From: an uncultured Akkermansia sp.
GTDB taxonomy: Bacteria; Verrucomicrobiota; Verrucomicrobiia; Verrucomicrobiales; Akkermansiaceae
Direction: 5' to 3'
NCBI GenBank assembly: GCA_900548895.1
Contig: URLZ01000010.1
Coordinates: forward strand, 1 to 60,426
DNA: 60,426 bases
The notes below the pieces were generated by a model. That model ran no database searches, was not told the origin of the DNA, and was given only the letters and a program-made list of their open reading frames with translations. Made by a program: the position numbers and the translations under genes. Every line of letters begins with the position of its first letter. Position 1 is the first letter of the stretch. Shown here in pieces: positions 4,654 to 51,378 of the stretch.

Positions 4654-7629
4654 TTACTTGCGCAGCTGCTCGCGCGTGGCCTTGAGCACCTTGACCGGCA
4701 CCTGCAGCGCGGGCAGACCCTCAGCCTTGACCGTCACCGTCGCCGTGCCGCTCTTGCCGCGATCACCGCGCACAATCGCCACGATGCGGCCGTTGAAGAA
4801 GGCCTGATCGGGATCCTGCATGCAGGTCTGATCAATCGGGTTGCCGTTGCAGAAGCCCACGAGCTTCGCCGGGCCGGTGATGCTGAAGCTCACCTTGCGC
4901 GAGTCCGTCGGCACCACGTTGCCCTTGGCGTCCACGAGAGCCAGCTCGACGTAGGCGAGATCACGGGCGTCGCCGACAATCCTGTTGCGATCGACCTCGG
5001 CCTGCACCTTCACGCTCTTGCCCGTCGTCACGCGCGTCGCCGTCGCCCACGGCTTGCCGTCCTTCTTGACGACAACCTTGAGCTCACCCGGCTCGTAGAC
5101 CACGTCCTCCCACGTGAAGCGGTGGCCGTTCTTGGAGATCTTCATACCGGCCTGATTGAAGGTGCCGCCTTCACCTTTCTTGCGCACGCCCTGACTCTTG
5201 CCGTTGAGGAAGAGCTCCGCCTCGTCGCCGGAGGAGAACACCATCACAGGCGTCTTCTTCCCGACGCGATCCGGCCAGTTCCAGTGCGGCAGGATGTGCG
5301 CCTGCTTCACCTCCGGAGCCCAGCGGCTCTGGTAGAGGTAATAGGTGTCCTTCGGGAAGCCGGCCAAGTCAATAATGCCGAAGTACGAGCTGCGGCTCGG
5401 GGCCTTGTTGCCCATTGCCTTGAGCTCAGCCATGGCCTTGGCCTTCTCCTCAGCAGAGGCTCCCTGGAAGTTGCCGATGTTCGACGCATCCTGATTGTAG
5501 GGAGTCGGTTCGCCGATGTAGTCGTGGCCCGTCCAGGCGTATTCGCCGGCAACGTTCTGATTCTGATCCTGCGAAGTGAACTCCGCATCCGGGCAGTAGG
5601 CCCAACCGGGGGCATAGAGGCCGTAGGCGCTCACCTGGAAGAGGCTGGCGCCGGCACCGATCTTCCAGAAGTTCTTTTGATCCGGGAAGAAGTAGGTGTC
5701 GCGCGTCGCGACGCAGGAGGCCGTCTCCGAGCCGTAGATCGGCTGCTTCGGGCGCTTGTTGATGAACTCCTTGTAGTTGGAGGGCTTGTAGTTGTAGCCG
5801 AAGACGTCCATCGTGTCCGCAAAGCCGTTGTAGGCGCCGTTGTAGGCGTTCACACCGACGGTGTAGGGGCGCGTCGTGTCATACTTGCGGAACTCCTCGC
5901 GCAGCTCCCGGGAGATGCCGCAGCCGTCGCGCGACGTGATTTCCGTGATCTCATTGCCGCCGCTCCAGGCGATGATGCAGGGATGGTTGCGATCGCGCTT
6001 CACGAAGTTCTGCACGTCCTTCTTCCACCACTGCGGCCATAAAACGTGGTAGCCGTTGACCTTGTCATACTTCTGGTGCTTCCAGATGTCGAAGAGCTCG
6101 TCGATGACGAGGATGCCGTGCTTGTCGCAGAGGTCGAGCACCTCAGGAGCGGGCGGGTTGTGCGTCATGCGGATGGAGTTGCAGCCCATCTCCTTGAGCT
6201 TCTCAATCTTGCGCTCATAGGCGCGCTCGTAGAAAGCGGTGCCCAGCGCGCCGAGGTCGTGGTGCTCGCAGACGCCGTTGAGGCGCACCTTCTCACCGTT
6301 GAGGAAGAAGCCCTCGGGGCGCCATTCAATCGTGCGCACGCCGAAGCTCGTCTCCTTCGAGTCAATCGTCTTGCCGTCGCGATCAATCGTCGTCGTCACG
6401 CTGTAGAGGTTGGGATTCTCGCAGCTCCAGAGCTTCGGATCTTCAAGCGTGATCGTCTGCTCCACCTCGCGGGACTCGCCGGGCGCCAGCTTCACCGTCA
6501 CGGGCTTGGCGCTCGCCTTGCCAATGCTCTGCTGCACCGTCACCTCGGCGGCCTTGTCATCCGTGTTGTCCACCGTCGTCTTCACCACCACCTTCGCGGC
6601 GTCCGCCGTGATTTCAGGCGTCGTCACGTAAACGCCCCAGTGGCCGATGTGCACGGGCGTCGTCTTCTCCAGCCAGACGTGGCGGTAGATACCCGCACCC
6701 GGGTACCAGCGCGTCGACAGCGGCTTGTTGCTGGCCTCCACGGCGATGAGGTTCTCGCCGGCCTTGAGGAAGGGCGTGATATCCACGCGGAAGGAGGAGT
6801 AGCCGTAGGCCCACTCGCCGGCCAGCTTGCCGTTGACGTAGACCTTCGGGCAGGCCATCACACCGTCGAAGTCGAGGTAATAGCGATCCTTCTCGGCACT
6901 GAAGCTCGCGGGCACCTCAAAGGTCTTGCGGTACCAGCCGTAGCCATTCCAAGGCAGCTTGCCGGTCTCGTTGGGCTCGTCCTTCAGGAAGGGGCTCTCA
7001 ATGGCCCAGTCGTGCGGCAGCTGTACACTCTTGAAATCGGAGGCGTCAAAGCCGACGCTGGCCGGCGTCACGACGCCATCGGATCCCTGCGGCTTCACCT
7101 TTTTGCCGTCGGCATCCTTGAGCACAACCTCGCGAATGCTGGCCCAAGCGCCCTGCGCCGTGCCGTCCACCTTGATGACGAGTTGCGAAAGGGGCTTGCC
7201 GTCAAGCTTCACCACAGTCCTGTCCGAGGCAACCTTGCCAACCTTGCGAGTGACGGTGCTCTTACTGCCGCTCGGCGTGCAGATGATGACGGGCTCCTTG
7301 GCGCGGTTGTTCTCCCAGAGGATTTCGACCGACTTGATGCGATCGCCGCCCAAGCGCAGAATGAGCTGATGACCGGCATGTGCATCGGCAGCGCACCAAC
7401 GCGTGTTCTTGTTGCCGTCCACGGCATTTTCCGGAGGATTGCCGGGCTGACTGCTGTCCGCGGAGACAGGCTTGGCGGCATCCAGCGGATTGATCTTGCC
7501 GTAATACTTGAATTGCCAGTCGAAGTCAAAGGTCGAGCGGTCTCCGGCATAGGCGGTGGCCATGCCCAAAGCGATCAGGGGGAGGAGGTATTTGGCGTTC
7601 ATGGTGTGTCTGAGTAGGCAGGGGTGCAT
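4654..7629 (-). CDS. secreted GH2 beta-galactosidase with discoidin-like insert
   Basis: The 991-aa exported glycoside hydrolase has an N-terminal signal peptide (hydrophobic core LLPLIALGMATAYA) followed by a mature GDRS end. At about residues 54-170 lies a discoidin/F5-8C-like module (NAVDGNKNTRWC). The GH2 sugar-binding, Ig-like and TIM-barrel domains follow. WSGGNEI (acid/base Glu near 559) and YGSETA (nucleophile Glu near 630) are intact. C-terminal beta-sandwich domains resemble DUF4982. A role in host or plant galactoside breakdown is inferred. AGGAG stands 8 nt before the start chosen; an internal ATG at 7602 is an alternative start that keeps the signal peptide. Confidence 0.92.
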   Translation of the reverse strand: MHPCLLRHTMNAKYLLPLIALGMATAYAGDRSTFDFDWQFKYYGKINPLDAAKPVSADSSQPGNPPENAVDGNKNTRWCAADAHAGHQLILRLGGDRIKSVEILWENNRAKEPVIICTPSGSKSTVTRKVGKVASDRTVVKLDGKPLSQLVIKVDGTAQGAWASIREVVLKDADGKKVKPQGSDGVVTPASVGFDASDFKSVQLPHDWAIESPFLKDEPNETGKLPWNGYGWYRKTFEVPASFSAEKDRYYLDFDGVMACPKVYVNGKLAGEWAYGYSSFRVDITPFLKAGENLIAVEASNKPLSTRWYPGAGIYRHVWLEKTTPVHIGHWGVYVTTPEITADAAKVVVKTTVDNTDDKAAEVTVQQSIGKASAKPVTVKLAPGESREVEQTITLEDPKLWSCENPNLYSVTTTIDRDGKTIDSKETSFGVRTIEWRPEGFFLNGEKVRLNGVCEHHDLGALGTAFYERAYERKIEKLKEMGCNSIRMTHNPPAPEVLDLCDKHGILVIDELFDIWKHQKYDKVNGYHVLWPQWWKKDVQNFVKRDRNHPCIIAWSGGNEITEITSRDGCGISRELREEFRKYDTTRPYTVGVNAYNGAYNGFADTMDVFGYNYKPSNYKEFINKRPKQPIYGSETASCVATRDTYFFPDQKNFWKIGAGASLFQVSAYGLYAPGWAYCPDAEFTSQDQNQNVAGEYAWTGHDYIGEPTPYNQDASNIGNFQGASAEEKAKAMAELKAMGNKAPSRSSYFGIIDLAGFPKDTYYLYQSRWAPEVKQAHILPHWNWPDRVGKKTPVMVFSSGDEAELFLNGKSQGVRKKGEGGTFNQAGMKISKNGHRFTWEDVVYEPGELKVVVKKDGKPWATATRVTTGKSVKVQAEVDRNRIVGDARDLAYVELALVDAKGNVVPTDSRKVSFSITGPAKLVGFCNGNPIDQTCMQDPDQAFFNGRIVAIVRGDRGKSGTATVTVKAEGLPALQVPVKVLKATREQLRK

Positions 7630-7646
7630 ACACCCTGCTCCTGTCT

Positions 7647-7675
7647 ACTCTATCGGAATTGGCGAGGCAGCGCAA
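7647..7675 (-). promoter_or_regulatory. promoter of the beta-galactosidase gene
   Basis: On the minus strand: TTGCGC (7670-7675), a 17-bp spacer and TAGAGT (7647-7652). The start point would be near 7640, about 11 nt before the 7629 start codon. Confidence 0.5.
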
Positions 7676-7980
7676 GGAAAAAACGTGACACGCACCGCGC
7701 CGAACGCTCGCGGCATGCCGTTTTCTGCGTTCCGAAGCCCGTCTCGCGGGGACGTTCCGACCTTCCGCCACGTGATTTCTCGCCGCAATTCCGCCACGAG
7801 ATTTGCCAAGCTCCCGCAGCATTTTTTGCTCAACCCGGCACCTTTCGCCGGGGGCCCATGATCACCGGAGATCGATGCTGAGGCTCACAGTGAGAGTGAA
7901 AAACCATACCGTGACGCCGATGACATGAAAAACAGTCTCAACAAATGGCTCGAGATACCCATTTTTTTGCAACGAAGGGG

Positions 7981-8011
7981 TTGACAAGGGTGGCGATCTG
8001 TGGCGTAATAC
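7981..8011 (+). promoter_or_regulatory. promoter of structured RNA copy 1
   Basis: A perfect -35 TTGACA (7981-7986) is followed after 18-19 bp by GTAATA/TAATAC (8005-8011). The predicted start coincides with the 5' strand of the RNA's closing stem. Sequence further upstream (ATTTTTTTGCAACGAA, 7961-7976) also resembles the region before copy 2. Confidence 0.6.
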
Positions 8012-8015
8012 ACTG

Positions 8016-8074
8016 TGCGCACCTGTGGCCGGCGTACCTTCGTGGTTGCCAATTCTGGGAGGTGCGCATTTTTA
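8016..8074 (+). ncRNA. short structured RNA, copy 1 (family unknown)
   Basis: A 59-nt element is closed by a perfect 9-bp stem (TGCGCACCT 8016-8024 with AGGTGCGCA 8060-8068) and ends in a five-T run. Inside, TGGC (8026-8029) can pair with GCCA (8048-8051), and ACC (8036-8038) with GGT (8044-8046). Promoter, closing stem and U-tract together look like a self-contained small RNA. The same arrangement recurs at 51311-51378 with identical blocks GCGCACCTGTGGCCGG and TTCTGGGAGGTGCGCATTTTT. I do not recognise the class. The next gene has its own promoter, so this is less likely to be its leader. Confidence 0.65.
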
Positions 8075-8298
8075 TTCTATATACCCAGCCTCTTCTGCGA
8101 GGTCGGGGGCCTTCTGCAGATCATTCGGATTGGCCGCGGCAGTATTTGCATCCCCGCACCTCTTACCCTGCTCCTGAGCAATCTATCCATTGATACACTA
8201 TCCGGGCGGAACGAACTCCGCGATGTCGGTCCCTGCACCCGTATCTTCCCGTATCTGATGCCGAGAGCTAACGGAGAGACGACATACCCGCTTTGCCC
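8075..8298. other. intergenic stretch
   Basis: No credible coding region. The short reading frames crossing it have no recognisable domain and run through the structured RNA or into the next gene out of frame. Confidence 0.4.
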
Positions 8299-8327
8299 TT
8301 TACTTTCGACCGGGTGCCCCCTACAAT
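8299..8327 (+). promoter_or_regulatory. promoter giving a leaderless mRNA for the 8334 gene
   Basis: TTTACT (8299-8304), 17-bp spacer, TACAAT (8322-8327). Transcription should begin about 7 nt later, at the GTG at 8334. Confidence 0.6.
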
Positions 8328-8333
8328 GGAGGC

Positions 8334-9623
8334 GTGATGACACCCCAGATTCTCGCCGAATTACTGCCGCCTCAGGGACTCTTCCGCGAACCGGGAATTC
8401 CGTGGCGCGTGAGCCCGGAGCCCCTCGCGCTGCCGAGAGCCCTGGTTCGCCAGTTGGAGGGGCTGGGGCACGTGCTGGCGCGCTTTCAGGACGCTGCGCA
8501 CGAGCTTTATCTGAACTCGGTCGCGGGGCGCGAAGCGCCGTGGCTCGCTCCGATGCTGGAGGCCGGCAAGCCGGAGTGGCTGGTGCAGGCGCAGCGCCGC
8601 AGCTCGGGGGCAAAGGCCGCCAGCGTCATTCGCCCCGATTTGCTCTGGTGCGATGACGGTCTCGCGCTCGCCGAGCTCGACAGCGTGCCGGGCGGCATGG
8701 GGCTGACGCTCTTTCTCTCGCGCGCCTACAGCCGCGCCGGCTACGAGATTCTCGGCGGAGCGGAGGGCCTGGCCGAGGGCTTTCGCAGCGCCCACCCGGA
8801 CGGGGCTCTGATCGCGGTCTCGAAGGAATCGTCGGACTATCGCCCCGAGATGGAGTATCTGGCTGAGGCGCTGGGGGCGGGCTATGACTGCGTGGACGCC
8901 GAGGGCCTACCCGAGGCGCTGCCCCCGGGCACGTGTCTCTACCGCTTCTTCGAGCTCTTTGACACCGAGGCCATCGCCCCGGCGCGCGCACTGCTGGAGG
9001 CTTCATCGCGGGGAGCCTTTCGCATGAGTCCCCCGGCGATTCAGCATCAGGAAGAGAAGGCGTGGCTGGCGCTCTTTCACTACCCCGGTCTGCAGCGCTA
9101 CTGGGAGCGCAGCTTGCGGGCGTCGCAGCTCTCGCGGTTGCGCCGTCTGATTCCGCGCGGATGGGTGGCGGACCCGACTCCGCTGCCGCCGCAGGCCGCC
9201 CTGCCCGGCCTCGATCTGCACGACTGGCAACAGGTTGCAGAGCTCGGTCGCAAGGCGCGGCGCCTCGTGCTCAAGATCTCGGGCTTCGACGAGCGCGCTT
9301 GGGGCGGGCGCGGTGTCTTCATCGGGCATGATCTGAGCACCGAGGACTGGGCCGCGGCGCTGCACCGGGCGCTGAGCGACTTCCCGGAGCGCCTCTGGCT
9401 GCTTCAGCAGTTCCGCGAGCCGCGCGTGATCGAGCATCCCGTCTGCGAGCCCGGCGGGGGCGTCGCCATGATGCGGGGGCGCGTCCGACTCTGCCCCTAC
9501 TACTTCCGCAGCGCCGGGGGCTCCACCTCGCTGGCGGGTTGCCTCGCCACCATCGTTCCGGAGGACAAGAAAAAGATCCACGGCATGCGGGAGGCAATTC
9601 TTGTGCCTTGCCAAAAGTCGTGA
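8334..9623 (+). CDS. unknown protein with ATP-grasp-like features
   Basis: I do not recognise this 429-aa protein with certainty. Around residue 103 it has RPDLLW...LAELDSVPGGMG, and near 310-365 KISGFDERAWGGRGVFIG and LLQQF. These resemble pieces of circularly permuted ATP-grasp ligases such as the glutathionylspermidine-synthase group, but the match is by eye only. No signal peptide or membrane segment is visible, so it is probably cytoplasmic. The start is GTG 8334, directly followed by ATG 8337; GGAGG lies too close to act as a normal ribosome-binding site. The sigma-factor promoter lies inside its 3' end. Confidence 0.6.
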   Translation: MMTPQILAELLPPQGLFREPGIPWRVSPEPLALPRALVRQLEGLGHVLARFQDAAHELYLNSVAGREAPWLAPMLEAGKPEWLVQAQRRSSGAKAASVIRPDLLWCDDGLALAELDSVPGGMGLTLFLSRAYSRAGYEILGGAEGLAEGFRSAHPDGALIAVSKESSDYRPEMEYLAEALGAGYDCVDAEGLPEALPPGTCLYRFFELFDTEAIAPARALLEASSRGAFRMSPPAIQHQEEKAWLALFHYPGLQRYWERSLRASQLSRLRRLIPRGWVADPTPLPPQAALPGLDLHDWQQVAELGRKARRLVLKISGFDERAWGGRGVFIGHDLSTEDWAAALHRALSDFPERLWLLQQFREPRVIEHPVCEPGGGVAMMRGRVRLCPYYFRSAGGSTSLAGCLATIVPEDKKKIHGMREAILVPCQKS

Positions 9624-10446: not shown

Positions 10447-11034
10447 ATGCAGCGAAAAGATAACCAGAGCGCCGCTTACGCGGAGGATGCTGAGTTGATG
10501 CGTCGCCTGAAGGAATCTCAGGACGAGGCAGCGCTGCGCGAACTCATCCGCCGCTACCAGAAGCCCATCTACACCATGGCCTACCGCATGCTGGGCAACG
10601 TCGATGAGGCCGAGGATCTCGCCCAGCGCACCTTCATCCGCGTCTGGAAGGCGGCAGACAGTTATGAGCCGACGGCCAAGTTCTCCACCTGGCTGTTCAC
10701 CATCCTGCGCAATCTCGTCTTCAACGAGACACGGCGCCGCACGCGCAAACCCACCACCTCGCTCGAGAACTGTATGGAGCAAGGCGTCGTCCCCGTCCAA
10801 CTCTCCGACAAATCGCCCGACTCGACGCTGGAAAACAAGGAATTGCAGCAGGCCGTCGACGCTGCGCTCGCCGAGCTCTCCCCCGATGCCGGTCTGGCGC
10901 TGCACCTCAGGCGCGAGCGCAATATGGGCTACGAGCAGATTGCCGCCATCCTCGGCAAGAGCGTCCCGTCGACGAAAAGCCTCATCCACCGCGCCCGTCA
11001 AGACCTCAGGCAGCGCCTCCGAAAATATCTCTGA
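10447..11034 (+). CDS. RNA polymerase ECF sigma factor (RpoE-like)
   Basis: The 195-aa protein is a standard ECF sigma factor. Region 2 contains IRRYQKPIYTMAYRMLGNVDEAEDLAQRTFIRVWK and KFSTWLFTILRNL. Region 4 contains LSPDAGLALHLRRE, MGYEQIAAILGKS and KSLIHRARQDLRQRL. It is closer to the classical RpoE/SigW group than the sigma gene just upstream. The 115-bp gap before it has no obvious promoter, so read-through from 9608-9636 is possible. The two unknown proteins downstream do not show anti-sigma motifs. Confidence 0.9.
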   Translation: MQRKDNQSAAYAEDAELMRRLKESQDEAALRELIRRYQKPIYTMAYRMLGNVDEAEDLAQRTFIRVWKAADSYEPTAKFSTWLFTILRNLVFNETRRRTRKPTTSLENCMEQGVVPVQLSDKSPDSTLENKELQQAVDAALAELSPDAGLALHLRRERNMGYEQIAAILGKSVPSTKSLIHRARQDLRQRLRKYL

Positions 11035-51275: not shown

Positions 51276-51306
51276 TTGACCGATGGCGAAAAATATGCTC
51301 TCATAG
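51276..51306 (+). promoter_or_regulatory. possible promoter of structured RNA copy 2
   Basis: TTGACC (51276-51281) stands 35 nt before the stem, matching the spacing in copy 1 (36 nt). The -10 is poor (TCATAG, 51301-51306). The shared block ATTTTTTCAACACGAA lies at 51258-51273. Confidence 0.45.
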
Positions 51307-51310
51307 CCTC

Positions 51311-51378
51311 GCGCACCTGTGGCCGGGGCACCCCCGGAAATAATAGCGGTCCCCACTTCTGGGAGGTGCGCATTTTTT
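51311..51378 (+). ncRNA. short structured RNA, copy 2 (family unknown)
   Basis: The closing stem GCGCACCT (51311-51318) with AGGTGCGC (51364-51371) is perfect and ends in six T. CCGGGG (51323-51328) pairs with CCCCGG (51332-51337) inside; GTGG (51319-51322) can pair with CCAC (51353-51356). Both ends match copy 1 at 8016-8074, while the middle differs in sequence and is longer by 8-9 nt. That pattern, conserved ends with a varied interior, is typical of structured RNA. Confidence 0.65.

What the first reader, a model, noticed from the sequence alone, without database searches (positions are those of the whole stretch)
8016..8074. Promoter-hairpin-terminator RNA unit, copy 1
A 59-nt stretch is closed by a perfect 9-bp stem and a U-tract, with TTGACA 36 nt before the GCGCACCTG block. 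It lies in a 700-bp non-coding region. The downstream gene has its own promoter, so this is probably an independent small RNA. A second copy at 51.3 kb shares the promoter element, both stem strands and flanking blocks. I cannot match it to a known class. The AGGTG strand of the closing stem resembles a ribosome-binding site and the CACCT strand an anti-Shine-Dalgarno, so interaction with ribosomes or mRNA leaders is worth testing.
Basis: partly seen in the sequence, partly recalled or inferred. Interest (0 to 1): 0.75.

Follow-up and report, generated by a model that had tools for sequence, protein, structure and literature searches.

The report
Two-copy small hairpin RNA, Akkermansia relative
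A gut bacterium related to Akkermansia carries two copies of a tiny predicted RNA gene of about 60 letters, with its own start and stop signals, whose core a sister species keeps letter for letter; it looks like a real but narrowly distributed regulatory RNA whose job is not yet known.

Summary
At 8016-8074 and 51311-51378 lie two copies of a promoter-hairpin-terminator unit. The window comes from a bacterium of GTDB genus Akkermansia. A third copy lies in a sister species, Candidatus Akkermansia intestinigallinarum, with all 43 core nucleotides identical to copy 1, although fourfold-degenerate sites of two genes are only 59% and 43% identical. Similarity covers promoter plus RNA and is lost after the terminator. 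Neighbouring genes differ at the three sites, and the reading frames on this strand are not conserved. Best reading: a free-standing, roughly 60-nt trans-acting RNA gene with two sibling copies. No Rfam family matches. A correct covariance model finds a strong hit in 1 of 260 genomes of the family; 13 others have weak hits that I judged terminators or partial matches. The proposed Shine-Dalgarno link has no positive support: complementary sites are not enriched and both arms are paired in the fold. Transcription and function are inferred, not shown. A new, lineage-restricted small RNA of a known kind.

The parts
7981..7986 (+). -35 box TTGACA of copy 1
   Evidence: Read directly; TTGACA also in the sister species at the same 17-nt spacing.
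8004..8009 (+). -10-like box CGTAAT of copy 1, 17 nt after the -35 box (TGTAAT in the sister species)
   Evidence: Not listed by the consensus scan, which requires A at position 2. Function inferred.
8016..8074 (+). copy 1: predicted ~60-nt RNA, from inferred start site to U-tract
   Evidence: Model R3 88.5 bits; fold of 8016-8080 -25.4 kcal/mol.
8017..8024 (+). closing stem, 5' strand GCGCACCT
   Evidence: Identical in all 3 copies.
8025..8030 (+). internal loop, 5' strand GUGGCC, identical in all 3 copies
8031..8050 (+). inner stem GGCG(U)ACC / GGUUGCC with UUCGU loop; C-G becomes G-C and G-U becomes G-C in copy 2
8051..8059 (+). internal loop, 3' strand AAUUCUGGG (ACUUCUGGG in copy 2)
8060..8073 (+). 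closing stem, 3' strand AGGTGCGC plus U-tract: intrinsic terminator
   Evidence: The terminator scan does not list it; that scan allows loops of 3-8 only.
51276..51281 (+). -35 box TTGACC of copy 2
51299..51304 (+). -10-like box TCTCAT of copy 2, spacing 17
   Evidence: weak match, not in the scan; inferred.
51311..51378 (+). copy 2: same arms and nearly the same internal loop, different inner stem, apical loop 10 nt longer
   Evidence: Model R3 80.2 bits.

Best explanation
A small RNA gene present as two sibling copies. A housekeeping-type promoter starts transcription at the foot of a hairpin, and the closing stem of that hairpin plus a U-tract stops it, giving a free RNA of about 60 nt with almost no single-stranded 5' end. 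Shown by comparison: the unit is conserved between two species, it does not keep one neighbouring gene, and it is not a conserved reading frame on this strand. Inferred: it is transcribed, and it acts in trans. What selection preserves is the closing helix together with a large asymmetric internal loop (GUGGCC facing A[A/C]UUCUGGG), while the apical end differs between the siblings; so this loop region is most likely the working surface, pairing with target mRNAs after partial opening or binding a protein. The two copies, with promoters of different strength, would give dosage or different inputs.
For: Third copy in the sister species with a 43/43 identical core, against 106/180 (Tgt) and 100/235 (Ffh) identical fourfold-degenerate sites in the same genome pair (0.589^43 is about 1e-10). 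Upstream similarity of copy 1 and the sister copy covers the promoter (0 of 1000 shuffles reach it); downstream there is none (717 of 1000 shuffles reach the score). The 17-nt spacer agrees in all three and the -35 box stands 35-36 nt before the stem. Neighbours differ: a GH2 gene and a reading frame of no Pfam family at copy 1; two reading frames of no Pfam family at copy 2; in the sister, two others of no Pfam family, the downstream one convergent. The sister's orthologous flanks of both window sites carry no copy (fetched; searched with R1). Frames differ between copies and one frame of copy 2 has two stops. Window and sister form a 100/100 clade in a Tgt tree of 31 rows.
Against: No transcript evidence. 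Only three copies, two from one genome. Covariation is minimal and not significant. Copy 2 by itself folds better another way (-31.5 against -24.2 kcal/mol for the shared fold). Consensus promoter scans list neither promoter. A strong hit in 1 of 260 family genomes, so dispensable in relatives or too diverged to see. No targets found.
Confidence: 0.72

Rival explanations
1. A special case of the best explanation: the RNA titrates or scaffolds an RNA-binding protein through its conserved internal loop, rather than pairing with mRNA. (Its odds overlap those of the best explanation.)
For: Both strands of the closing helix and nearly all of the internal loop are conserved in sequence, not just in pairing; no Hfq found in 6 of 6 genus genomes tested; complementary sites not enriched.
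Against: No protein partner identified; with three sequences, pairing seeds and protein sites cannot be told apart; the window's own genome is not held.
Confidence: 0.3
2. Promoter-proximal attenuator: the hairpin stops transcription early and a signal lets polymerase read on into the downstream gene.
For: In the window both copies have a same-strand reading frame downstream (8334 and 51489), about 320 and 180 nt from the presumed start.
Against: These downstream reading frames have no Pfam family in common; in the sister species the next long reading frame is convergent; no similarity is kept downstream of the U-tract; the 8334 gene has its own promoter-like site (9 of 12 positions; 0.4 such sites expected by chance).
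Confidence: 0.1
3. A short mobile or repeat element (REP- or MITE-like) that happens to carry a promoter and terminator.
For: Different locations in the two species; two copies in 60 kb; the sister copy lies about 1.7 kb from a tRNA gene.
Against: One copy found in the sister's 2.1 Mb assembly; copies 1 and 2 share no flank similarity beyond chance (388 and 266 of 1000 shuffles reach the scores); no match in plasmids or phages or, with two patterns, viral contigs.
Confidence: 0.1
4. Just a terminator hairpin, its likeness between copies being a common stem sequence.
For: Terminator-like hairpins with GCGCACC/GGTGCGC stems exist elsewhere in the family.
Against: Those lack the conserved internal loop; here the 43/43 core identity between species includes the loops, and the promoter region is conserved too.
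Confidence: 0.05

Closest known systems
FopS small RNAs of Bacteroides thetaiotaomicron (PMC11697453, passages read)
   Same: Family of paralogous small RNAs, bands of about 65 and 70 nt, 9 of 14 intergenic, canonical promoters, ending in a terminator hairpin, in a gut bacterium.
   Different: FopS has a single-stranded 5' stretch with the seed before the terminator hairpin, and 14 copies; here the hairpin takes up nearly the whole RNA and two copies are seen in 60 kb. The paper says FopS was deposited in Rfam; the window has no Rfam match.
CsrB sibling RNAs (PMC6262261, abstract and section list read)
   Same: Small RNA genes present in several copies by duplication, with differential regulation of the copies proposed.
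   Different: CsrB is much longer, has repeated GGA hairpins and binds CsrA (recalled); here one hairpin.
IS10 RNA-OUT and plasmid copy-control antisense RNAs (recalled)
   Same: Short hairpin RNA made from its own promoter.
   Different: Those lie antisense to their target; here the RNA lies between genes.

Membership tests
Independent bacterial small RNA gene | own promoter | tested here: met
   TTGACA/TTGACC with a 17-nt spacer in all three copies; the region is conserved beyond chance between copy 1 and the sister. By sequence only; the consensus scans do not list them, and copy 2's -10 box is weak.
Independent bacterial small RNA gene | intrinsic terminator | tested here: met
   8-bp GC-rich stem and U-tract in all three.
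Independent bacterial small RNA gene | not a coding sequence | tested here: met
   Three frames of the + strand: they differ between copies, 10-nt insertion, two stops in one frame of copy 2. The other strand was not tested.
Independent bacterial small RNA gene | detected transcript | not testable with these tools
   No expression data available.
Any Rfam family | match at gathering score | tested here: not met
   0 matches in the window; in 7630-8340 at relaxed E-value one 12.4-bit match elsewhere (7757-7828, other strand).
Hfq-dependent base-pairing RNA | host has Hfq | tested here: inconclusive
   0 of 6 genus genomes have an Hfq match, the sister among them; the control rings in 5 of 14 known genomes. 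The window's own genome is not held and completeness of the six is not told.
Covarying structured RNA | significant covariation | tested here: inconclusive
   One two-sided change in 15 pairs, 3 sequences; 165 of 500 shuffles do as well.
FopS-type RNA | single-stranded 5' stretch before terminator hairpin | tested here: not met
   With the start inferred 6-7 nt after the -10-like box, the hairpin begins at once.

The most novel reading that the evidence does not exclude
The RNA is a protein-binding decoy or scaffold: a ~60-nt hairpin whose asymmetric internal loop, kept letter for letter between species, is read by an unknown RNA-binding protein in a lineage where Hfq was not found.
Probability: 0.25. 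Interest if true: 0.6.

Novelty: new member of a known kind. Interest (0 to 1): 0.36.

Why it matters
I saw no paper on small RNAs encoded by Akkermansia or other Verrucomicrobia among the rows listed by four searches of the held library (15 of 91 papers; 56: 15 of 139; 61: 9 of 9; 89: 10 of 7,728; listings only), which is not proof of absence. A short, strongly conserved RNA gene gives a concrete entry point to RNA regulation in gut Verrucomicrobia, where 6 of 6 genomes tested show no Hfq match. Its narrow range limits its general weight.

Tried and rejected
Wider family, patterns: one true copy (the sister) among 145 family genomes. A looser pattern gave 17 matches in 16 of 76 genus genomes; one is the sister's copy, the other 16 were not followed up; the reversed control gave 28 matches by my count of the table, so they look like chance.

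Wider family, models: R1 hits other than the true copies score 14-24 bits in the genus and family. Of these I looked at the best (ten alignments, three of them the true copies) and at 6 loci (one, L077, printed empty because the locus is cut). R3 hits other than the sister score 22.3-26.5 bits; all 13 were printed with 50 nt upstream: 9 are short terminator-like hairpins, 4 are partial matches. The best, L023, has a promoter-like pair by eye (TAGACA, 17 nt, TATCTT), but it starts 18 nt after the stop of a 198-aa reading frame, folds as one hairpin with a single mismatch and no large internal loop, and is most likely that gene's terminator; R2 does not lift it (21.2 bits).

Promoter-plus-RNA model R2 on 36 genus genomes: 20 of 36 have a hit at E up to 2; the sister scores 136.5 bits, the next, L127, 30.9 and lies antisense inside a 692-aa reading frame. 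I printed 12 of the other hits, five with alignments; the aligned ones share the promoter boxes and an A/T stretch, not the RNA core. The rest were not looked at.

Model error: the structure string I gave for R1 was shifted by three columns on the 3' side; found. R1 results are in effect sequence searches; R2 and R3 have the right structure, and the family search was repeated with R3. Region counts for the 3' half use the same wrong boundaries and are replaced.

Target search: no enrichment. One near-complementary site about 760 nt upstream of the sister copy (L069:6603-6616) is about 130 nt from the likely start codon of the next small frame and was not pursued. Synteny: ORF150 was not found by tblastn in 30 trmB loci (flanks up to 1.5 kb, some cut by contig ends).

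Full report
What is there. Copy 1 (8016-8074, + strand) and copy 2 (51311-51378, + strand) are promoter-hairpin-terminator units as described. In register: -35 TTGACA 7981-7986 / TTGACC 51276-51281; 17-nt spacer; -10-like CGTAAT 8004-8009 / TCTCAT 51299-51304; then 6-7 nt to the foot of the hairpin. The RNA part is GCGCACCU - GUGGCC - inner stem-loop - A[A/C]UUCUGGG - AGGUGCGC - U-tract. Between the copies the outer arms are 8/8 and 8/8 identical, the loop strands 6/6 and 8/9, the inner stem strands 6/8 and 5/7, and the apical loop differs, with 10 extra nucleotides in copy 2. The consensus scans list neither promoter, since they demand A at position 2 of the second hexamer, and not copy 1's terminator, since they allow loops of 3-8 only.

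Is it more than chance. Copy 1 against the rest of the window gives 42.1 and 32.2 bits at copy 2; the best of 40 Markov-shuffled windows is 28.2. Full scoring of the window with the correct model R3 gives 88.5 and 80.2 bits for the copies and 13.7 for the next. The folding energy alone is weak evidence (z -2.55, 3 of 200 shuffles as good; z -1.31, 20 of 200).

Where the window comes from and the third copy. One pattern scan of the genome-contig collection (84,980 species) returned 3 stretches. Two have no U-tract and I take them for chance; one is Candidatus Akkermansia intestinigallinarum (DXFQ01000089.1; L001, L069, genome G001), in which 43 of 43 core nucleotides equal copy 1 and TTGACA plus TGTAAT stand at the same spacing. 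Its Ffh is 90% identical to the window's, and a Tgt tree of 31 rows places window and G001 together with 100/100 support. In this pair, fourfold-degenerate sites are identical at 106 of 180 (Tgt) and 100 of 235 (Ffh), so 43 of 43 is far from neutral. The similarity of copy 1 and the sister copy extends upstream through the promoter (0 of 1000 shuffles reach it) and not downstream (717 of 1000). Copy 2 shows no flank similarity to either beyond chance (388 and 386 of 1000 upstream, 266 and 604 of 1000 downstream), so I infer an old duplication.

Context. Copy 1 lies between a GH2 glycosidase gene and a reading frame of no Pfam family; copy 2 between one of no Pfam family and a 150-aa reading frame, also without Pfam match, before trmB-tgt. 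In G001 the RNA stands about 1.7 kb after a tRNA-Arg gene, between a small reading frame and a convergent one, neither in Pfam. The G001 stretches orthologous to both window neighbourhoods lie on other contigs and carry no copy (searched with R1, filters off). No constant neighbour makes cis-regulation unlikely. The three + strand frames differ between copies, so it is not a conserved peptide on that strand.

Distribution. R3 gives a strong hit in 1 of 260 genomes of the family (90.8 bits). The other 13 genomes with a hit at E up to 0.05 score 22.3-26.5 bits and were judged terminators or partial matches from their sequence. That search used the stricter filters for over 40 genomes and scored at most 20 first-look candidates a genome. 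R2, promoter plus RNA, with permissive filters on 36 genus genomes gives one strong hit, G001 (136.5 bits; next 30.9), among 20 genomes with any hit at E up to 2. Genome completeness is not told for these handles. No match in 72,556 plasmid and 50,697 phage records (copy 1 with promoter as query), none in viral contigs with two patterns, none in Rfam for the window; L069 has only its tRNA.

Structure. With the correct pairing, 45 of 45 cells pair; the closing stem never varies, the inner stem has one C-G to G-C change and one G-U to G-C change. The shuffle control reaches this in 165 of 500 cases, so covariation is suggestive at most. Copy 2 alone prefers another fold by about 7 kcal/mol.

How it most likely works. 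A small RNA made from its own promoter and acting in trans, with two differently driven siblings, is the most economical reading (0.72). The conserved surface is the closing helix and internal loop. Pairing with mRNAs is the default for such RNAs, but I found no enrichment of complementary sites: 17 and 17 matches (own locus included) against 16 and 24 of the reversed control in G001, and no shift in the window's start regions, using crude gene calls. No Hfq match in 6 of 6 genus genomes tested. Protein binding is therefore a serious alternative. The ribosome idea rests on GGGAGGUG being able to pair with the 16S tail (recalled sequence), but this arm is also the terminator arm and sits in a GC-rich helix.

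What is known. The closest described kind is the FopS family of Bacteroides thetaiotaomicron, paralogous small RNAs of about 65-70 nt with canonical promoters and a terminator hairpin (PMC11697453, passages), which differ by a single-stranded 5' stretch that holds the seed. Three structured-RNA surveys (PMC11109978, PMC8040213, PMC8632094; term counts in the main text; supplements not read) do not name Akkermansia or Verrucomicrobia there. Among the rows listed I saw no paper on small RNAs encoded by Akkermansia; this is not proof of absence.

Noticed in passing
L069:6751-7005: Small reading frame upstream of the sister's RNA copy; the stretch 6618-7136 has an 87% identical second copy on another contig of G001 (C152:1306-1815), so the RNA there lies near a duplicated segment, 1-2 kb from a tRNA-Arg gene. 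A Pfam check of the frame failed on a wrong coordinate.
   Followed up: partly
L076:1501-1532, L078:1501-1556, L033:1501-1534: Terminator-like hairpins in other family genomes use nearly the same GCGCACC(T)/(A)GGTGCGC stem as this RNA.
   Followed up: partly
window:51489-51941: A 150-aa reading frame next to copy 2 with no Pfam or PHROGs match, not found by tblastn in 30 trmB loci of relatives.
   Followed up: partly
window:22096-23985: Long ankyrin-repeat protein; by eye an ankyrin-like frame may also stand next to the copy-2 neighbour's ortholog in G001 (L068, not tested).
   Followed up: no
window:9645-10331 and 10447-11034: Two reading frames with sigma-70 region 2 matches close together downstream of copy 1.
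   Followed up: no
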